A DNA stretch of 23,707 nt from a virus. Positions 2 to 22,895 of this stretch are shown here, piece after piece; the first letter of the stretch is position 1, and every line of letters starts with the position of its first letter. The stretch spans positions 1 through 23,707 of IMG/VR virus record IMGVR_UViG_3300044630_001514, one strand, 5' to 3'. A program made the translations under genes and the position numbers. A model generated the notes under the pieces. It was not told the origin of the DNA. It saw only the letters and a list, made by a program, of their open reading frames with translations, and made no database searches.

Positions 2-412
2 GCATTAGTTAATGGAACAGACCTACGCATATTTGTAGGAACAAAAAAGATAGCATTTGAAACTTCTTGCGACATTGAACTTTCAACTACAATGATTGAA
101 ACTTCTAGCAAAGATAGTGGTGCATGGGAAACTGCAATTCCTGGACGTAAGTCTTGGGGTTTATCAGCTACAATCCAATTGGATTACAATGATGCTGATA
201 CTACAGTTTATACTTATGATGAGTTATTGACTGCTTGGTTAAATCAATCAGTATTAACAGTATCTTTCAAGACTGCAGCTTCGGCAGCAACAGTATTGAC
301 TGGTACAGCATACGTTGAGTCTAAGCCAGTTCAAGGTGGTGACATGGAGATTGCAACAGTAGATGTAACTTTAAGAGGTACAGGCGAATTAGTTAAGACT
401 ACTGCAGCTTAA
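2..412 (+). CDS. Phage tail tube (major tail) protein, 5' end cut off by the window
   Basis: The frame is open from base 2, and the first ATG (base 92) lies well inside it, so the start is outside the window. The visible 136 residues look like the C-terminal half of a TP901-1-type major tail protein, the subunit that polymerises into the tail tube. The tell-tale pattern is a run of beta strands with 'ETSSKDSGAWETAIPGRKSW', then a strand-rich segment ending 'VDVTLRGTGELVK'. The downstream genes (frameshifted chaperone, then tape measure) are the usual neighbours of a tail tube gene. A strong hairpin terminator follows directly, as expected for a highly expressed structural gene. I am fairly sure of the tube assignment and less sure of the exact family. 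Confidence 0.75.
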   Translation, partial: ALVNGTDLRIFVGTKKIAFETSCDIELSTTMIETSSKDSGAWETAIPGRKSWGLSATIQLDYNDADTTVYTYDELLTAWLNQSVLTVSFKTAASAATVLTGTAYVESKPVQGGDMEIATVDVTLRGTGELVKTTAA

Positions 413-496: not shown

Positions 497-874
497 ATGC
501 GTACTATCACATACGAAAACAAAAAAATTAATCTTGATTTTTCATTAGGTTGCATCAATGATGTGTATGTTAAGGAGTTAGGTGGAAACTTTGATGACTT
601 AATTAACATTAGCGAACACGAAAGTAATCCTTCTAAGATGATGGATATTACTCGTGATATGCTACTTAGTGGCCATATATATTGGCTATTTTGTAACGGA
701 GAAGATGAGAAAGCAGAGGAGTTATTAGGTAAGTTAAAGTCATCTAAAATGATTGCAACTAAGTGGCTTATGACTGCTACAATACCTGTTATTGTTGAAT
801 GGTTAAGCAAGGATTTAATGCCAAGTGAAATGGATCAACCTTTAGGGCAAGTTAACACAAAAAAAAAGAGGTAA
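497..874 (+). CDS. Tail assembly chaperone, short form (gpG-like)
   Basis: This 125-residue, mostly helical protein lies between the tail tube and tape measure genes, exactly where lambda gpG and its analogues lie. In that family the short form, together with a longer frameshift product, coats the tape measure protein and recruits tail tube subunits; neither is usually in the mature virion. The start has a typical A/C-rich Bacteroidota leader (ACAAACCAACAAATACA before ATG). The gene ends in a run of lysine codons (N-T-K-K-K-R) made by nine A followed by G, which contains the A AAA AAG slip site. No sequence-level similarity to lambda gpG is visible; the call rests on position, size and the frameshift architecture. 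Confidence 0.7.
   Translation: MRTITYENKKINLDFSLGCINDVYVKELGGNFDDLINISEHESNPSKMMDITRDMLLSGHIYWLFCNGEDEKAEELLGKLKSSKMIATKWLMTATIPVIVEWLSKDLMPSEMDQPLGQVNTKKKR
862..868 (+). promoter_or_regulatory. Programmed -1 ribosomal frameshift site (A AAA AAG)
   Basis: In the reading frame of the 497-874 gene the codons at 857-871 are ACA AAA AAA AAG AGG. Bases 862-868 therefore read A AAA AAG, the same heptamer used in E. coli dnaX. Slipping back one base at the final AAG gives GAG GTA ATT AAG, and that frame stays open to 1182. A small hairpin (880-885 with 890-895, loop AGTG) starts 11 bases downstream and could stimulate slippage. Confidence 0.75.
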
Positions 875-1182
875 TTAAGTGGGGAAGTGTCCTCAAAAGA
901 ATTTATAGAACTGGATTAAAGCCATACGAATGGAAAAGAATGACACTAGGTGAATTTCTTGACTATGAATATGGCTTTGAACTTAGAAAGGCAGAGGAGT
1001 GGGATGGAATAAGAAATTTAATGTGGGCATCCCTAGCTTCTATGGGTGGCGATAAAGTACCTAAGCCAAAAGACCTAATACCGTTGTGGACAGACAAGAT
1101 AACTAAACGTATAGAAAAAACAAAAGAAAAAGAGTATCTTTCGGATGAAGAAGTTATAAATTGGGTTAATACGATTAAGTAA
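868..1182 (+). CDS. Frameshift extension of the tail chaperone (gpT-like part of the gpGT fusion)
   Basis: This frame is -1 relative to the 497-874 gene. It is open from 856 (a stop sits at 853-855) and runs into the end of the preceding gene. If ribosomes slip at 862-868, the fusion has about 124 residues of the short form plus about 104 new residues beginning E-V-I-K-W-G-S. An internal ATG at 940 would give an 80-residue protein, but the reading frame is protein-like upstream of it (R-I-Y-R-T-G-L-K-P-Y-E-W-K), which supports the fusion. The stop overlaps the tape measure start by one base (TAATG). In lambda-like tails the T part binds the tape measure and the tube subunit. Confidence 0.7.
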   Translation, partial: EVIKWGSVLKRIYRTGLKPYEWKRMTLGEFLDYEYGFELRKAEEWDGIRNLMWASLASMGGDKVPKPKDLIPLWTDKITKRIEKTKEKEYLSDEEVINWVNTIK

Positions 1183-3380
1183 TGGCAGAAACTAATGAGT
1201 TTTTTATCAGGGTTGGTGCTGATGTTGAGGATGCAAAAAATAAGCTAAATCAATTAGGTAGCCAACTATCGCAACTTGCGAACTCTACACAAAAAAGTGG
1301 GAATATGATTGGTGGGAGCATGGACAATGCTTCTAAGCAAATATCTTCTGCTTTTCGTGGTATGGGGATAGCCTTAACTACTGCAGGTATTACTGCAGGG
1401 TTATTTGCTTTTGTTAAAAGTGCATTATCTACTGCTGCTCAATTAGAACAAACTTCAGTTGCCTTTGAGGTCTTTACGGGATCAGCAGAAACTGCAAGTG
1501 AGATGCTTGCACAATTAAAAGACCAAGCATTAAAGTCACCAATGCAATTCTTAGATATAACTAAGGGTGCACAAATACTTCTTCAATATGGTTTAACGGC
1601 AGAGCAAGTAGTTCCTATCACTAAAATGTTAGGTGATGTTTCTGCAGGTAATGCTGATAAATTTAATCGTTTAGCCTTAGCATTTGGTCAAGTAAATGCT
1701 TCAGGTCGTTTAATGGGTCAAGAGGCTCGGCAAATGATTAACGCAGGCTTTAATCCATTACAAGCTATTTCAGATAAGACTGGTCTTTCGATGGCAGTTC
1801 TTACTCAAAGAATGCACGATGGTCAAATATCTGTTAAAGAGGTAGGGGATGCTTTTATTGCTGCAACAAGTGAGGGAGGTAGATTCTTTGGAATGGCAGA
1901 TAAGCAATCTCAAACATTACAAGGTGCTTATAATAAGCTTGCAGAAAGCATTTCATTTGCAATGGGCGATGTTGGAGATTCTATTGCTAAAGCATTTAAT
2001 TTAAACGATGTTGCTGAAGGTGCAATTGGGTTTTTTGCTGAAATAAAAGGTGCTTTAAATTCTAATAAAGATGTAGCTGAAACTTTAAGATTAACTGTTG
2101 AGGCACTTAAATTTACTTTTGGATTACTTAAAAATGTCATTATATTTCTTGTTAACTCTTTTCAAGATTTATCTAAGGCTTTTATATTTGTTCTTAATGA
2201 TGGCAAACCTGTTATTGATTTCTTTTCTAATTTAATTAGTAGTGCTTATGAATATTTAAAAAGTATTAAATATGTAGGTGCAGCATTAGAGTTTTTGATT
2301 GGTAAGTTTACTAAGATTGATAATGCTCAACCTAAACTAGAAGCCCCAAAAGTAGAAGAACAACCATTAACTGGATTAAACGCAACTCCTAGTAAAAAAG
2401 AAGGAGGCACAAAGAAAGCAGAAAAGGTAGAGGTTATTGCAGGTACAGATTTCCAAACTAAAGCCTATGGTGAGCATCTAAAGAAACTCATGCAGATGAG
2501 TGCTAATGCGGTAACTGAAATAAATAATATTGGCTTAGATGGTAACAAAAAGAAGTTAGCAGATTTACAAGATTCATTCCAAAAGCAACAACGTGAGTTT
2601 ATGCGTTATGGAATTGATACTACTAACATTACAAGGTCATACTTATTAAAAGTTGCACAATTATCGGCAGAGGTTGAGGCGGAAAAGCAAAATATGCTAC
2701 TTAGTTTAATAAAGCCATTGCCTACTGATGCAGATAGATTAAAAAATGTACTTATATCAGATGAAAGGCTTGGTCAATTAAGTGCAGGTTTAGCAACAGA
2801 ATTAAAACTTATTCAAGATGCTACATTAGCACAACAAAATGCTTGGTTAACAATGTATAATACTGTTAATGCAGCATCTAAATCATTTACTGAATCATTA
2901 TCAGGTTCATTTGCTGATATGTTTATTTCTATTGGACAAGGAGGAAGTGCAGGGGATGCAATCAAAAGTTTTGGTGCAGGAATATTAGGTGCTTTAGGAG
3001 ATATGTTTATTAAGATTGGTGTTGGAGTTGTTGCTGCATCTAAGGCAATGCTTGCGGTACAAGCATTTATAACAAGTATGTTTACCCCATTTGGTGTTGC
3101 AGCAGGATTAGCAGGAGGTTTGGCAATGATTGCAGTAGGAGGTTTATTAAAAGGTACTGCTAGTGCAATGGGTAAAGCTAAATCTCAAGGTGCACCTACA
3201 ACAGGTGGTGCAACAATGAGCCAAAGAGCATCAGGTAGTAATTATAGTTATGGTGGTGGTTCATTCCCTACACAAACTATGAGATTATTAGTTGACCTTA
3301 CAGGATCAATTACTGCGACACAAACTGGATATAGCATAAACAAATCATTCGAAACAACACTTAGAGTAACAGGTAGATAA
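1182..3380 (+). CDS. Tail tape measure protein
   Basis: At 732 residues this protein would set tail length and thread through the tube; at roughly 0.15 nm per residue the tail would be about 110 nm (inference). The N-terminal third carries the conserved tape-measure N-terminal domain (TIGR02675-like), with 'AAQLEQTSVAFEVFTGSAE', 'SPMQFLDITKGAQILLQYGL' and 'LMGQEARQMINAGFNPLQAI'. A charged, lysine-rich linker lies near residues 385-415. The C-terminal third has long hydrophobic glycine/alanine-rich helices (around residues 600-670), as usual for proteins that later insert in the host membrane during DNA entry. The start overlaps the previous stop by one base and the stop overlaps the next start by one base, so the three genes are translationally coupled. 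Confidence 0.92.
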   Translation: MAETNEFFIRVGADVEDAKNKLNQLGSQLSQLANSTQKSGNMIGGSMDNASKQISSAFRGMGIALTTAGITAGLFAFVKSALSTAAQLEQTSVAFEVFTGSAETASEMLAQLKDQALKSPMQFLDITKGAQILLQYGLTAEQVVPITKMLGDVSAGNADKFNRLALAFGQVNASGRLMGQEARQMINAGFNPLQAISDKTGLSMAVLTQRMHDGQISVKEVGDAFIAATSEGGRFFGMADKQSQTLQGAYNKLAESISFAMGDVGDSIAKAFNLNDVAEGAIGFFAEIKGALNSNKDVAETLRLTVEALKFTFGLLKNVIIFLVNSFQDLSKAFIFVLNDGKPVIDFFSNLISSAYEYLKSIKYVGAALEFLIGKFTKIDNAQPKLEAPKVEEQPLTGLNATPSKKEGGTKKAEKVEVIAGTDFQTKAYGEHLKKLMQMSANAVTEINNIGLDGNKKKLADLQDSFQKQQREFMRYGIDTTNITRSYLLKVAQLSAEVEAEKQNMLLSLIKPLPTDADRLKNVLISDERLGQLSAGLATELKLIQDATLAQQNAWLTMYNTVNAASKSFTESLSGSFADMFISIGQGGSAGDAIKSFGAGILGALGDMFIKIGVGVVAASKAMLAVQAFITSMFTPFGVAAGLAGGLAMIAVGGLLKGTASAMGKAKSQGAPTTGGATMSQRASGSNYSYGGGSFPTQTMRLLVDLTGSITATQTGYSINKSFETTLRVTGR

Positions 3381-5446
3381 TGATAGGATACGGAACTATT
3401 TATAGATTTGAGTTTGATGCAACTTGTAAACCATTTGCAACCTTACTCACAACTAAATGCAAGGTATTAATTCTTAAAAAAGGATATAATGCTACTATTT
3501 ACGATATTCCTTATGGACAAGTAACTCCAGTTGAAATTGATTACCCTACTGTAGATGATGACATTTTCTACCCAATTAAGGGTTCATCACTAAGCTTTAA
3601 AGTTCTTGGTGGTGTAATTAATATGGATTCACTTATTAGTGAGGATGAGAAAGATTTCTACTTAGAATACTACAGAGATGAAGCTTTATTTTGGAGTGGA
3701 TTTGTTTCTCCTGAATTATGCGAAGAAGATATATTCTTGCGTTACCCTGCTATTGAGTTTAAAACTATTGATGGCTTAGGTACTTTAAAGACAATGCAAT
3801 TAAACGATTCTGCGGGACGTAAATTGTTTGGTCGAAGGAGTTTATTAGAAATAGTATTATCTGCCTTTAGAGGGGTAGGATTTGGCTATAAGACTAACAT
3901 ATTAGCTAATGTTTGGGCTAATGGTTTTGACAAGTTATTAAATCCACTTGTTCAAGCTATTACTTATATAAATGTTTATAGAGATAAGAATGGTATTCAG
4001 TTATCAACGATAGATATTATAAAGTCTATCTGCTACTTATTTAATGCAGTTCTTTATCAGAATAGAGGCCAATGGTGGTTTGTTAAGATTAAAGACTTAG
4101 CTTTTTCTCTTAACGGAACTCAAGTTTATAATGCTGATGGTACTTTAGCTTCACCTGGTACAGGTACAGTTAAAACTCTTGTGCATGGAACTGACTTCTT
4201 AATTGTAGCAGAACCTAAAAGAAAGATTAGAAGATTTTACAAAGAGGTTGCATTAGATTATCAATTCTACAAGTCTTACAAGAACTTAGATATAAACTTT
4301 TCTTGCTACAATCTTTTTAACACAACTCCTAGAATATTAGAAGCTGACTTTACAGATAACCTATTAGCATTTAATGTTGTAAGAACTGGTAATGAAGCTA
4401 CTTATGAATTTTATACTAAAGTGGGTAGTGTTAAGACTGAATCTTATTACGATCCACGATTAGACAATTATGGCATTGTTGTTTATAGTGATGCAGGTGC
4501 TAATACTGACTATGTAGAATATTCTTATGGTGCATTAATACCAACTGATAAGTTTTCATTTAGTTCTAGTAGTATTACGGGTAATCAAAAAGTAGAGATA
4601 CTTATAGAAACAAATACTGTTAGTCATTACTACGATATATTTGCTGAAACATGGAGTACAACAAGAACTTATAACACAGGAGGTTATTACCCAACATTGT
4701 TTGTTACGGACTTAAATCCTCCTGCTACAGGTATATTAAAGATTAGATTACACTCTGCATTAGAACTTGAGGATTACGGTGAGTTCTTTGCTTTTTATGA
4801 TTACATAACTGCTTATAACGATTTTATTGTTAACATTATTGAAACAACTAAATCTAATCAAGTAACAACAATTACTAATATCAAGAACACCTCTATTGTT
4901 CCTGAAATGGTAACGGTGTACAATGGTGATTCTAAGCAGATACCTCCATTACAAGGAAGCAATATTGAGGATATATCCAATCTACTAACGGGAATCAATA
5001 CTAAGACTAAGGAGTGGTATGAAAGGTCTGAAGAAGATGTTTATGAGTTGCAAGAGTTGTCTGCTCGTAATATTCTTAATCAATACTCTGACTATAGAAA
5101 TATCTTTACAGGTACATTGATTGGTAAGGGATTAGAGTTTGGAAGTATATATACTTTCCCTATGCAAGGTGCTTTAGCAGATAAGAAGTTCTTCCCATTG
5201 TCAATGAAGATGAATGAGAGGGATAATACTGCTGAAGTAGTGTTGATGGAACTCACTTCCAATGAGATAACTGGAACACTAAACCAAGTTATCTACGATA
5301 CTGAAGGAAACATCATTTATCAAACTACGGTTTCTTCTAAAAAAAAAAATCGTAACGGTGTAGGAACTGACTTAGGAGAAGCAGGAGAATCAGGTACATT
5401 ATTCGACAGATTCGTTGCCTTCTTTATGGATGATTTTAAACCTTAA
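3380..5446 (+). CDS. Large tail-tip or baseplate hub protein (distal tail position)
   Basis: This 688-residue protein is not recognised by a catalytic motif. It directly follows the tape measure gene with a one-base overlap, where Dit and hub (Tal-like) proteins are found, and it is rich in beta strands. The N-terminal part (about 1-140) resembles the strand-rich body of Bacteroidota phage tail proteins ('IKGSSLSFKVLGG', 'FWSGFVSPELCEED'). A middle part around residues 200-240 has 'TIDIIKSICYLFNAVLYQNR' and 'GQWWFVKIKDLA', a recurring arrangement in hub-like proteins. A lysine/asparagine-rich stretch lies near residue 655. A role as tail-tip structural protein is likely; a finer role cannot be read from the sequence. 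Confidence 0.6.
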   Translation: MIGYGTIYRFEFDATCKPFATLLTTKCKVLILKKGYNATIYDIPYGQVTPVEIDYPTVDDDIFYPIKGSSLSFKVLGGVINMDSLISEDEKDFYLEYYRDEALFWSGFVSPELCEEDIFLRYPAIEFKTIDGLGTLKTMQLNDSAGRKLFGRRSLLEIVLSAFRGVGFGYKTNILANVWANGFDKLLNPLVQAITYINVYRDKNGIQLSTIDIIKSICYLFNAVLYQNRGQWWFVKIKDLAFSLNGTQVYNADGTLASPGTGTVKTLVHGTDFLIVAEPKRKIRRFYKEVALDYQFYKSYKNLDINFSCYNLFNTTPRILEADFTDNLLAFNVVRTGNEATYEFYTKVGSVKTESYYDPRLDNYGIVVYSDAGANTDYVEYSYGALIPTDKFSFSSSSITGNQKVEILIETNTVSHYYDIFAETWSTTRTYNTGGYYPTLFVTDLNPPATGILKIRLHSALELEDYGEFFAFYDYITAYNDFIVNIIETTKSNQVTTITNIKNTSIVPEMVTVYNGDSKQIPPLQGSNIEDISNLLTGINTKTKEWYERSEEDVYELQELSARNILNQYSDYRNIFTGTLIGKGLEFGSIYTFPMQGALADKKFFPLSMKMNERDNTAEVVLMELTSNEITGTLNQVIYDTEGNIIYQTTVSSKKKNRNGVGTDLGEAGESGTLFDRFVAFFMDDFKP

Positions 5447-20244: not shown

Positions 20245-20599
20245 ACATTTTAAGGTCTAAACCATATTCTTCCATTAAGCTATTAACACGATTGTTAAGT
20301 TCTAACTTCTTAGCTTCTTCCATTGTGTCCATTTGTAATCCTAACTCAAAGAAGAACTTCATAATACCACTAGCATTTACAAATTGCTCTACAACATTTT
20401 GCATATCAACTCCATCACCATTTTGTGATTTAAAGATGTGGTCAACATTTTTCTCTAACTCAATCTTTAATTGGTTAGTCAATAATTTAACCTTTCGGAC
20501 ATTACCTGATGACCTTTCCCAATCATCCTCTATAAAGTCATAAAGGAACTGGCAATGGCTGTAGTAAAGCAAGAATTTGTTTGTTTGGGATTGTTTCAT
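20228..20599 (-). CDS. Helical protein of unknown function
   Basis: This 123-residue protein is almost entirely helical, starting with an aromatic-rich segment ([15 protein letters not shown]) and including '[20 protein letters not shown]' and '[20 protein letters not shown]'. No family is recognised. The start overlaps the stop of the HNH endonuclease gene by four bases (ATGA), and the stop lies within the NTPase-like gene. Confidence 0.6.
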
Positions 20600-21162
20600 G
20601 CTAAAATAAAATTTGTGTCGTTTGGTATTAAATTTCTAAGCTTGTATTGAAGTTTTATATAATTGTGATTAACTGATTTAGCTGCCATTTTAATATTATC
20701 AAAATAAATACCGCTATTAGTATTAAGAACCATTTTTTGATTTACTGTTCTTAATCTATTTTTATGTTCTTCACTAAATACAATTAAATTATTTGCCCAA
20801 GCATGATCTACATTTTGCTGATGACTACACCATTCTAAATTTTCAAGTCTATTGTCTGTCTTAATTCCATTTTTATGGTTAACAAAAGGATAATTGTTGG
20901 GATTATCTAAAAATGTTAAACATACAAGCCTATGAACTTTGCAAACATGATTTTTTTTATCATAAAAAATACCAACTACTAAATAACCTTGAGAGTTTTT
21001 TACATTAGTAAGTTCTTTGGGCTTACCCGTACGATTGTAGTTTTTGCTAATAACTTTACCATAATTACTTACTAAATATAATTCAGGTGCAGTTGGAAGT
21101 TCTTTCCAAATTTCTTTTTGTGTCATTTGTTTGGGTAGTTTTCGGTTAATATTCTTCTTCAT
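20596..21162 (-). CDS. HNH homing endonuclease with NUMOD4 domain (first copy)
   Basis: This free-standing homing endonuclease has 188 residues. Residues 17-40 form a NUMOD4 DNA-binding motif ('[20 protein letters not shown]'). The HNH nuclease core spans about 77-120: V-H-R-L-V with His77, V-N-H-K-N-G with His96, and N-R-L-E-N-L-E-W. The C-terminal 50 residues resemble a helical repeat that reads DNA next to the cut site (IENR1/NUMOD1-like, [15 protein letters not shown]). I start it at ATG 21162; the preceding TTG has no support. It overlaps both neighbours by a few bases, so it is translated within the operon and does not interrupt a visible gene. Confidence 0.85.
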
Positions 21163-21259
21163 CAAATCCTAGTAGCTTATTCATTAAAACAAATGGTAAG
21201 CATACTAGAAATATTGTGATGGCTAAAGTCCAGGTTAAGATGTTTCTTATAAGAATCAT
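21146..21259 (-). CDS. 37-residue single-helix membrane peptide
   Basis: The ATG at 21259 shares a base with the stop of the upstream gene (TAATG). The peptide starts M-I-L-I-R-N, has one membrane helix ('[17 protein letters not shown]', about residues 10-26) and ends with an acidic tail G-F-D-E-E-E-Y. It overlaps the HNH gene start by 17 bases. Function unknown; the basic-then-acidic flanks suggest a fixed orientation with the tail outside. Confidence 0.6.
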
Positions 21260-22273: not shown

Positions 22274-22377
22274 ACTTCAGATAATTTAAGGATGAAATGG
22301 GCATATAAGAAGAATAATACGGCAAGTACCCAGTAGGCAATTGCTACAAGCTTTGAATAATCATTGTCATCTTTCAT
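22270..22377 (-). CDS. 35-residue single-helix membrane peptide
   Basis: The ATG at 22377 overlaps the HNH stop by four bases, and the TGA overlaps the next ATG by four bases; both junctions are ATGA. The peptide is M-K-D-D-N-D-Y-S-K followed by one membrane helix ('LVAIAYWVLAVLFFLYAHFI'). Perfect coupling on both sides argues strongly that it is translated. Function unknown. Confidence 0.65.
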   Translation of the reverse strand: MKDDNDYSKLVAIAYWVLAVLFFLYAHFILKLSEV

Positions 22378-22895
22378 ATATAAACTAATGAAGTGTTATT
22401 ATTTGATTTTCCGTTTAGCATTCTATATAATGAACTATATTTAATGTTATTTTCTTTAGATGCAAGTGTAATTGATTCATAAATAACTCCATTGCTATTA
22501 TTTAAAACTCTTTTACAAACAACAGCTTTCATAGCTTTAAAAGCATTTTCACTAATTTTATTTAAACCATTGGCAAAAGCGTGTTTTTGATTTTCTGAAG
22601 CAGTAACCCATTCAAGATTGTTAATATTATTATTAGTCTTAACACCATCAAAGTGGTTAACATAATCTTTATTTTCCTTTTTATATAAAAAACTAATTGC
22701 AACTAGCCTATGTATGAGAAAATGTTTTGCATCGCCATTCTTACATAGTGAAATAGAATTATACCCATTACGATCTAACTTCTGCTTTAACATCTTTTCT
22801 TTCTTTGTAAATTGATTACCCAAAGACTTAACATTACCTAAAGTGCTTATTTGATAAATCCCTTCATATCCGATAATATCTTTCCAAATTTCCAT
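22374..22895 (-). CDS. HNH homing endonuclease with NUMOD4 domain (second copy)
   Basis: This 173-residue protein has the same architecture as the one at 20596-21162 but is clearly divergent. NUMOD4 is at residues 1-25 (E-I-W-K-D-I-I-G-Y-E-G-I-Y-Q-I-S), the HNH core about 62-106 (I-H-R-L-V with His62, V-N-H-F-D-G with His81, N-N-L-E-W), and a C-terminal DNA-reading repeat follows (N-N-S-N-G-V-I-Y-E-S-I-T-L-A-S-K). It stands free in the operon and ends with an ATGA overlap onto the membrane peptide gene. Upstream lies a 118-bp AT-rich gap with a weak CCCA/TGGG hairpin. Confidence 0.85.
   Translation of the reverse strand: MEIWKDIIGYEGIYQISTLGNVKSLGNQFTKKEKMLKQKLDRNGYNSISLCKNGDAKHFLIHRLVAISFLYKKENKDYVNHFDGVKTNNNINNLEWVTASENQKHAFANGLNKISENAFKAMKAVVCKRVLNNSNGVIYESITLASKENNIKYSSLYRMLNGKSNNNTSLVYI

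What the first reader, a model, noticed from the sequence alone, without database searches (positions are those of the whole stretch)
862..895. Tail chaperone made by -1 frameshifting at A AAA AAG
The slip heptamer lies in the correct frame, the -1 frame is open to the tape measure gene, and a 6-bp hairpin lies 11 bases downstream. This mirrors lambda G/GT, in a Bacteroidota-type phage with no visible sequence similarity to lambda. A plain reading of the DNA would list two unrelated genes.
Basis: partly seen in the sequence, partly recalled or inferred. Interest (0 to 1): 0.6.

Follow-up and report, generated by a model that had tools for sequence, protein, structure and literature searches.

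The report
Phage tail-chaperone frameshift at nine A's
This phage almost certainly makes a short and a frameshifted long form of its tail-assembly chaperone at a run of nine A's, as phage lambda does at a different sequence, and a second, longer A run that can shift the frame in the same way is conserved near the end of a neighbouring tail gene.

Summary
ORF 497-874 carries A AAA AAG at 862-868 in the right phase. The -1 frame is open to 1179, the fusion has 228 residues, and the tape measure gene starts at 1182. Fifty-odd IMG/VR relatives (46 distinct junctions) all keep the -1 arrangement, except one contig. The -1 frame is under purifying selection from the slip site on (pN/pS 0.16-0.24), ahead of any start codon. 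The N-half model resembles tail assembly chaperones. So a lambda G/GT-type pair of chaperone products is well supported. The hairpin exists but is no better than chance and does not covary.

45 of 46 junctions keep exactly nine A's, including a wobble A the ribosome does not need, and nearly all lack a Shine-Dalgarno-like stimulator. The one exception has lambda's own G GGA AAG instead, with AGGAGG upstream. All relatives also keep a second run, A10-A11 (window 5339-5349), near the end of the gene after the tape measure; half the family needs a -1 shift there to reach a conserved C-terminal peptide. This favours RNA polymerase slippage slightly (about 0.5 against 0.4 for the ribosome). No expression data exist.

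The parts
2..412 (+). major tail (tube) protein, 5' end cut by the window
   Evidence: Pfam PF06199 E 1.8e-9; phrog_1407 major tail protein E 1.8e-23
497..874 (+). short chaperone product (G-like), 125 aa, zero frame
   Evidence: ORF; 40+ homologues; model pLDDT 85 resembles BFVD tail assembly chaperones
859..867 (+). nine-A run, exact length conserved in 45 of 46 distinct junctions
862..868 (+). slip heptamer A AAA AAG in the zero frame
   Evidence: sequence, phase checked
868..1182 (+). -1 frame extension (T-like), 104 aa plus stop, no ATG/GTG/TTG start before 940
   Evidence: pN/pS 0.16-0.24 in 868-939 and similar after it; phrog_16333 E 7e-4
872..874 (+). zero-frame stop TAA
880..895 (+).
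1182..3380 (+). tape measure protein, 732 aa
   Evidence: PF20155 E 7e-28; phrog_9959 E 5e-50; TIGR02675
3380..5446 (+). tail gene after the tape measure, 688 aa, function unnamed; carries the second A run
   Evidence: phrog_33803 E 3e-14; no Pfam or PDB match
5339..5349 (+). second poly-A site (A11 here, A10 or A11 in all relatives); in half the relatives the conserved C-terminal peptide lies in the -1 frame after it
5361..5363 (+). TAG stop in the alternative frame after the A11 run (short form ..KKKIVTV*), kept in the relatives

Best explanation
Positions 859-868 are a programmed -1 recoding site. Most translation stops at 872 and gives a 125-residue chaperone (G-like). A minority continues in the -1 frame and gives a 228-residue fusion (GT-like) whose extra domain would recruit tail tube subunits while the shared domain coats the tape measure protein. 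Shown by comparative sequence: the frames, their conservation, coding constraint across the junction, and the position between tail tube and tape measure. Inferred from lambda: the roles of the two products and that their ratio matters. Which machine slips is inferred only weakly. I put RNA polymerase slippage on the A9 run (one extra A in some transcripts) at about 0.5, ribosomal -1 slippage on A AAA AAG at about 0.4, both together at about 0.1; all give the same protein sequence. The same phages carry a second conserved A10-A11 site near the end of the gene after the tape measure, which probably makes short and long forms of that protein in the same way. The confidence below is for the shared core (programmed -1 recoding of a tail chaperone).
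For: All relatives but one contig keep the overlap and -1 offset: 46 distinct junctions at 57-100% C-half identity. In codons 868-939, which no start codon can reach, pN/pS is 0.16 (near) and 0.24 (all) in the -1 frame and above 1 in the other frames. A divergent lineage (L093-L095, three contigs) has GGG GGA AAG in place of AAA AAA AAG, i.e. lambda's heptamer in the same phase. N-half model pLDDT 85; best structural neighbours are named tail assembly chaperones, Foldseek prob 1.00, TM about 0.55. The C half is linked through phrog_16333 and phrog_7377 to genes in the same slot of Cellulophaga phage phi39:1 and Bacteroides phage Bacuni_F1. For polymerase slippage: the codon before KKK is T, I, V, A or S yet ends in A in 18 of 18 representatives, while no third position with four-fold freedom is invariant elsewhere in the N half; 41 of 46 junctions have no SD-like motif and the only AGGAGG is in L093; A9 recurs in a different codon phase in Bacuni_F1 and L268; the A10-A11 second site. 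A run of nine A's is a known transcriptional slippage site in T. thermophilus dnaX (PMC3711429), and a 9-A run in Yersinia tssM3 also slips (PMC4256274).
Against: No RNA, protein or reporter data. Foldseek E-values are weak (best 0.016) and no PDB match was found. No sequence or profile match to lambda G or T. Against polymerase slippage in particular: the in-phase heptamer and the L093 swap are what a ribosomal site predicts, and published tail-chaperone frameshifts are attributed to ribosomes (PMC5009743). Shared descent explains part of the run-length conservation.
Confidence: 0.9

Rival explanations
1. One reading: ribosomes slip -1 on A AAA AAG (862-868), as at lambda G/T and E. coli dnaX, and the A9 length is incidental or provides a second overlapping heptamer A AAA AAA.
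For: Heptamer in exact phase in 45 of 46 junctions, and the exception is lambda's G GGA AAG with an AGGAGG 9 nt upstream; [quoted passage not shown] coli (PMC5009743).
Against: Nine A's conserved where six plus G suffice, with the wobble A before KKK under selection; no conserved hairpin or SD element in A9 members; a second A10-A11 site whose frames flip between relatives.
Confidence: 0.4
2. Two independent genes: the downstream protein starts by itself at ATG 940 (80 aa).
For: ATG 940 is the first start codon of the -1 frame.
Against: 24 codons upstream of that ATG are under the same -1-frame constraint (pN/pS 0.16-0.24), including conserved I and W at residues 3 and 5 after the slip.
Confidence: 0.03
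3. The frame break is a sequencing error in a homopolymer and the gene is one continuous ORF.
For: Contig 3300013295_000057 (L053) has A10 and an unbroken ORF.
Against: 45 distinct junctions from many assemblies all read A9, and three contigs with no long homopolymer (GGGGGAAAG) keep the -1 offset.
Confidence: 0.02

Closest known systems
Phage lambda G/GT tail assembly chaperones
   Same: Gene order tail tube - chaperone - extension - tape measure; -1 offset near the end of the first ORF; one relative has the identical in-phase heptamer G GGA AAG.
   Different: No sequence or profile similarity to G or T; A9G run instead of G GGA AAG in the window.
E. coli dnaX -1 ribosomal frameshift (A AAA AAG)
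   Same: Same heptamer in the same phase.
   Different: dnaX has an SD-like element and a stimulatory hairpin (PMC3711429); here neither is conserved.
Poly-A transcriptional slippage genes (T. thermophilus dnaX A9; C. rodentium tssM1 A11; Y. pseudotuberculosis tssM3 A9)
   Same: A run of defined length, two products from one gene, no obvious stimulators; run lengths 9 and 11 as at the two sites here (PMC4256274, PMC3711429).
   Different: Not known to me in a phage tail chaperone; slippage is not shown here; the first site is also a good ribosomal heptamer.
Bacteroides phage Bacuni_F1 / F2 / F4 and Cellulophaga phage phi39:1 genes in the same slot
   Same: Two adjacent 'hypothetical' genes between tail tube and tape measure, C halves related (phrog_16333), A run at the junction.
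   Different: Bacuni_F1 has A9 in another codon phase (GAA AAA AAA AGC TAA); phi39:1 has A8 and a +1 (or -2) offset.

Membership tests
lambda G/GT-type frameshifted tail chaperones | two ORFs between major tail protein and tape measure gene | tested here: met
lambda G/GT-type frameshifted tail chaperones | second ORF in -1 frame, overlapping, no own start at its beginning | tested here: met
lambda G/GT-type frameshifted tail chaperones | in-phase slippery sequence conserved in homologues | tested here: met
   45 of 46 A AAA AAG, 1 of 46 G GGA AAG; one further contig (L053) has the halves in one frame
lambda G/GT-type frameshifted tail chaperones | sequence homology to lambda G or T (not required in the published family, which rests on position and frameshift) | tested here: not met
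   hhalign against lambda G and T: no match; Pfam Phage_tail_T only E 0.08, 2 of 13 members
lambda G/GT-type frameshifted tail chaperones | chaperone fold of the N domain | tested here: inconclusive
   Foldseek prob 1.00, TM 0.55 to named tail assembly chaperones but E 0.016; no PDB match
lambda G/GT-type frameshifted tail chaperones | both products made, in a fixed ratio, absent from virions | not testable with these tools
   needs protein data
stimulated ribosomal -1 frameshift sites (dnaX type) | conserved downstream RNA structure | tested here: not met
stimulated ribosomal -1 frameshift sites (dnaX type) | upstream SD-like element at about 10 nt | tested here: not met
   absent in 41 of 46; AGGAGG only in L093
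poly-A transcriptional slippage sites | homopolymer of 8-9 or more A maintained beyond coding need | tested here: met
poly-A transcriptional slippage sites | mRNA population with extra or missing A's | not testable with these tools
   no RNA data

The most novel reading that the evidence does not exclude
In this phage family the stoichiometry of tail assembly is set by RNA polymerase slippage on two A runs of graded length in one tail module: A9 for the tail chaperone fusion and A10-A11 for short and long forms of the protein encoded after the tape measure gene, with occasional exchange of the first site for a lambda-type ribosomal site.
Probability: 0.42. Interest if true: 0.7.

Novelty: new variant of a known kind. 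Interest (0 to 1): 0.48.

Why it matters
Tail-chaperone frameshifting is a classic case of ribosomal recoding, and ordinary annotation misses it here: in the named relatives the halves are filed as two hypothetical genes. If the A runs work through RNA polymerase, the same assembly problem is solved at the level of transcription, and run length becomes a simple dial for the product ratio. The L093 lineage offers a natural swap between the two solutions, and the second site suggests a further tail protein made in two forms. Both are cheap to test with reporters and with metatranscriptome reads.

Tried and rejected
Hairpin as stimulator: tested on 36 sequences, no consensus fold and no covariation above controls. 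Prophage relatives in bacterial genomes: two scans, none. Relatives of either half in named phages by tblastn: none with the window N half, only a chance hit with the L093 C half; the link to Bacteroides and Cellulophaga phages came through PHROG profiles. Broader viral scans returned the same set of contigs. Structure of the C half: low confidence (pLDDT 55), not used. A mixed alignment of N and C pieces with the fused L053 protein misaligned and was discarded. Homology to lambda G/T by profile: none. DnaB-type helicase as host marker: uninformative. The second site was looked for in phi39:1 and Bacuni_F1 and not found. The fused query typed lacked one lysine, which does not affect the result.

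Full report
Observation. ORF 497-874 ends ACA AAA AAA AAG AGG TAA; nine A's occupy 859-867 and G is 868. A AAA AAG (862-868) is in the zero frame as NNX XXY YYZ. The -1 frame is open 856-1179 and the tape measure gene starts at 1182. The fusion has 124 + 104 = 228 residues. All stated coordinates are right. The hairpin 880-895 is real as a string but not significant (z 0.20).

Surroundings. The upstream gene is a tail tube protein (PF06199). Downstream is a tape measure protein (TMP_3, E 7e-28), then an unnamed 688-aa tail gene, a Con A-like protein, an S74-peptidase tail protein and others. The record is a 23.7-kb virus contig. The tape measure and the C half point to phages of Bacteroidota; this is indirect.

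Conservation. In all of them the halves are offset by -1 and the zero-frame stop lies within two codons of the heptamer: 45 have A9G with A AAA AAG, and one (L093-L095, three assemblies) has GGG GGA AAG followed by TAG. That is lambda's heptamer in lambda's phase. One further contig, L053, has A10 and one unbroken frame. In 868-939, where no start codon exists in the -1 frame, pN/pS in that frame is 0.16 among near relatives and 0.24 overall, against values above 1 in the other frames; after ATG 940 it is similar. The C half is therefore read through from the slip site.

What the proteins are. AlphaFold2 of the N half with 13 sequences gives pLDDT 85. Foldseek against viral models lists several named tail assembly chaperones near the top (prob up to 1.00, TM 0.53-0.57, E about 0.02), none in PDB. 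The C half matches phrog_16333 and phrog_7377 (E 7e-4 and 1.6e-4), which also match genes directly upstream of the tape measure in Cellulophaga phage phi39:1 and Bacteroides phage Bacuni_F1. Similarity to lambda G and T was not found. Function is thus assigned by position, frame arrangement and fold, not by homology to lambda.

Which machine slips. For the ribosome: perfect phase, the G after the run, and the L093 variant. In L093 an AGGAGG stands 9 nt before the heptamer, as at dnaX-type sites. For RNA polymerase: (i) nine A's exactly in 45 of 46. The codon before KKK encodes T, I, V, A or S and ends in A in 18 of 18 representatives below 88% identity, whereas among 108 third positions of the N half only seven are invariant and none is four-fold free. 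(ii) 41 of 46 junctions have no SD-like motif and no RNA structure is conserved. (iii) Bacuni_F1 and L268 have A9 in another codon phase and L269 in the same phase, and phi39:1 has A8 with a +1/-2 offset. (iv) A second site, next paragraph. I weigh these at about 0.5 polymerase, 0.4 ribosome, 0.1 both.

Second site. [quoted passage not shown] In 31 distinct sequences (window included) the run is always A10 or A11. In 15, including the window, the conserved tail peptide NGVGTDLG...FVAFFMDDF is in frame. In the other 16, including L093, the zero frame ends at once (..SKKKIVMG*, TAG) and the peptide lies in the -1 frame, under constraint beyond the stop (pN/pS 0.21), with no start codon near its beginning. 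The TAG is kept in the alternative frame of the in-frame group as well. In 294 kb of non-redundant tail-module DNA, A/T runs of nine or more occur at site 1 (31 of 32 loci), at site 2 (32 of 32) and once elsewhere. Two lengths of run giving the same two products is what slippage by RNA polymerase predicts; a ribosomal -1 shift on A AAA AAA is also geometrically possible in the out-of-frame group.

Literature. Conserved tail-chaperone frameshifting with -1, -2 or +1 direction is established (PMC5009743); two genes of an HK97-like chaperone cluster gave 6-7% frameshifting in experiments (PMC3711429). A9 transcriptional slippage is known for T. thermophilus dnaX (PMC3711429), and A11 and A9 for tssM genes (PMC4256274). 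Searches of the held library found no report of poly-A slippage in a phage tail chaperone or of the second site; subscription papers are mostly not held.

Verdict. What is added is that the nine-A run itself is under selection and that a second conserved poly-A site exists in the same module. These make the mechanism an open and easily tested question.

Noticed in passing
5339-5349 (gene 3380-5446): A11 run; A10 or A11 in all 31 distinct sequences; half of them need a -1 shift to reach the conserved C-terminal peptide RNGVGTDLG..FVAFFMDDF. Likely second recoding site.
   Followed up: partly
L179:2699-3425 (Cellulophaga phage phi39:1 gp19/gp20): Same slot, C half in +1 (or -2) frame relative to gp19 at ATA AAA AAA AGA AGG TAG; annotated as two hypothetical proteins.
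   Followed up: partly
L267:2061-2713 (Bacteroides phage Bacuni_F1): Two annotated hypothetical genes are probably one chaperone plus -1 fusion at GAA AAA AAA AGC TAA.
   Followed up: partly
L053:1143-1826: Single contig with A10 at site 1: chaperone and extension in one 228-aa ORF; fused variant or homopolymer error.
   Followed up: partly
L093 upstream of 1777: Only relative without the A9 run; it has G GGA AAG and an AGGAGG 9 nt upstream of the heptamer.
   Followed up: partly
L270:2641-3092 (phi39:1 gp22/gp23): Two overlapping ORFs, both annotated from MS/MS as structural proteins; the second frame holds a RHRIGVGVNKSGGTG stretch resembling the peptide after the window's A11 run, but there is no A run.
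   Followed up: no
20596-21165 and 22374-22895, minus strand: Two ORFs that by their sequence look like HNH/NUMOD homing-type proteins; not searched.
   Followed up: no
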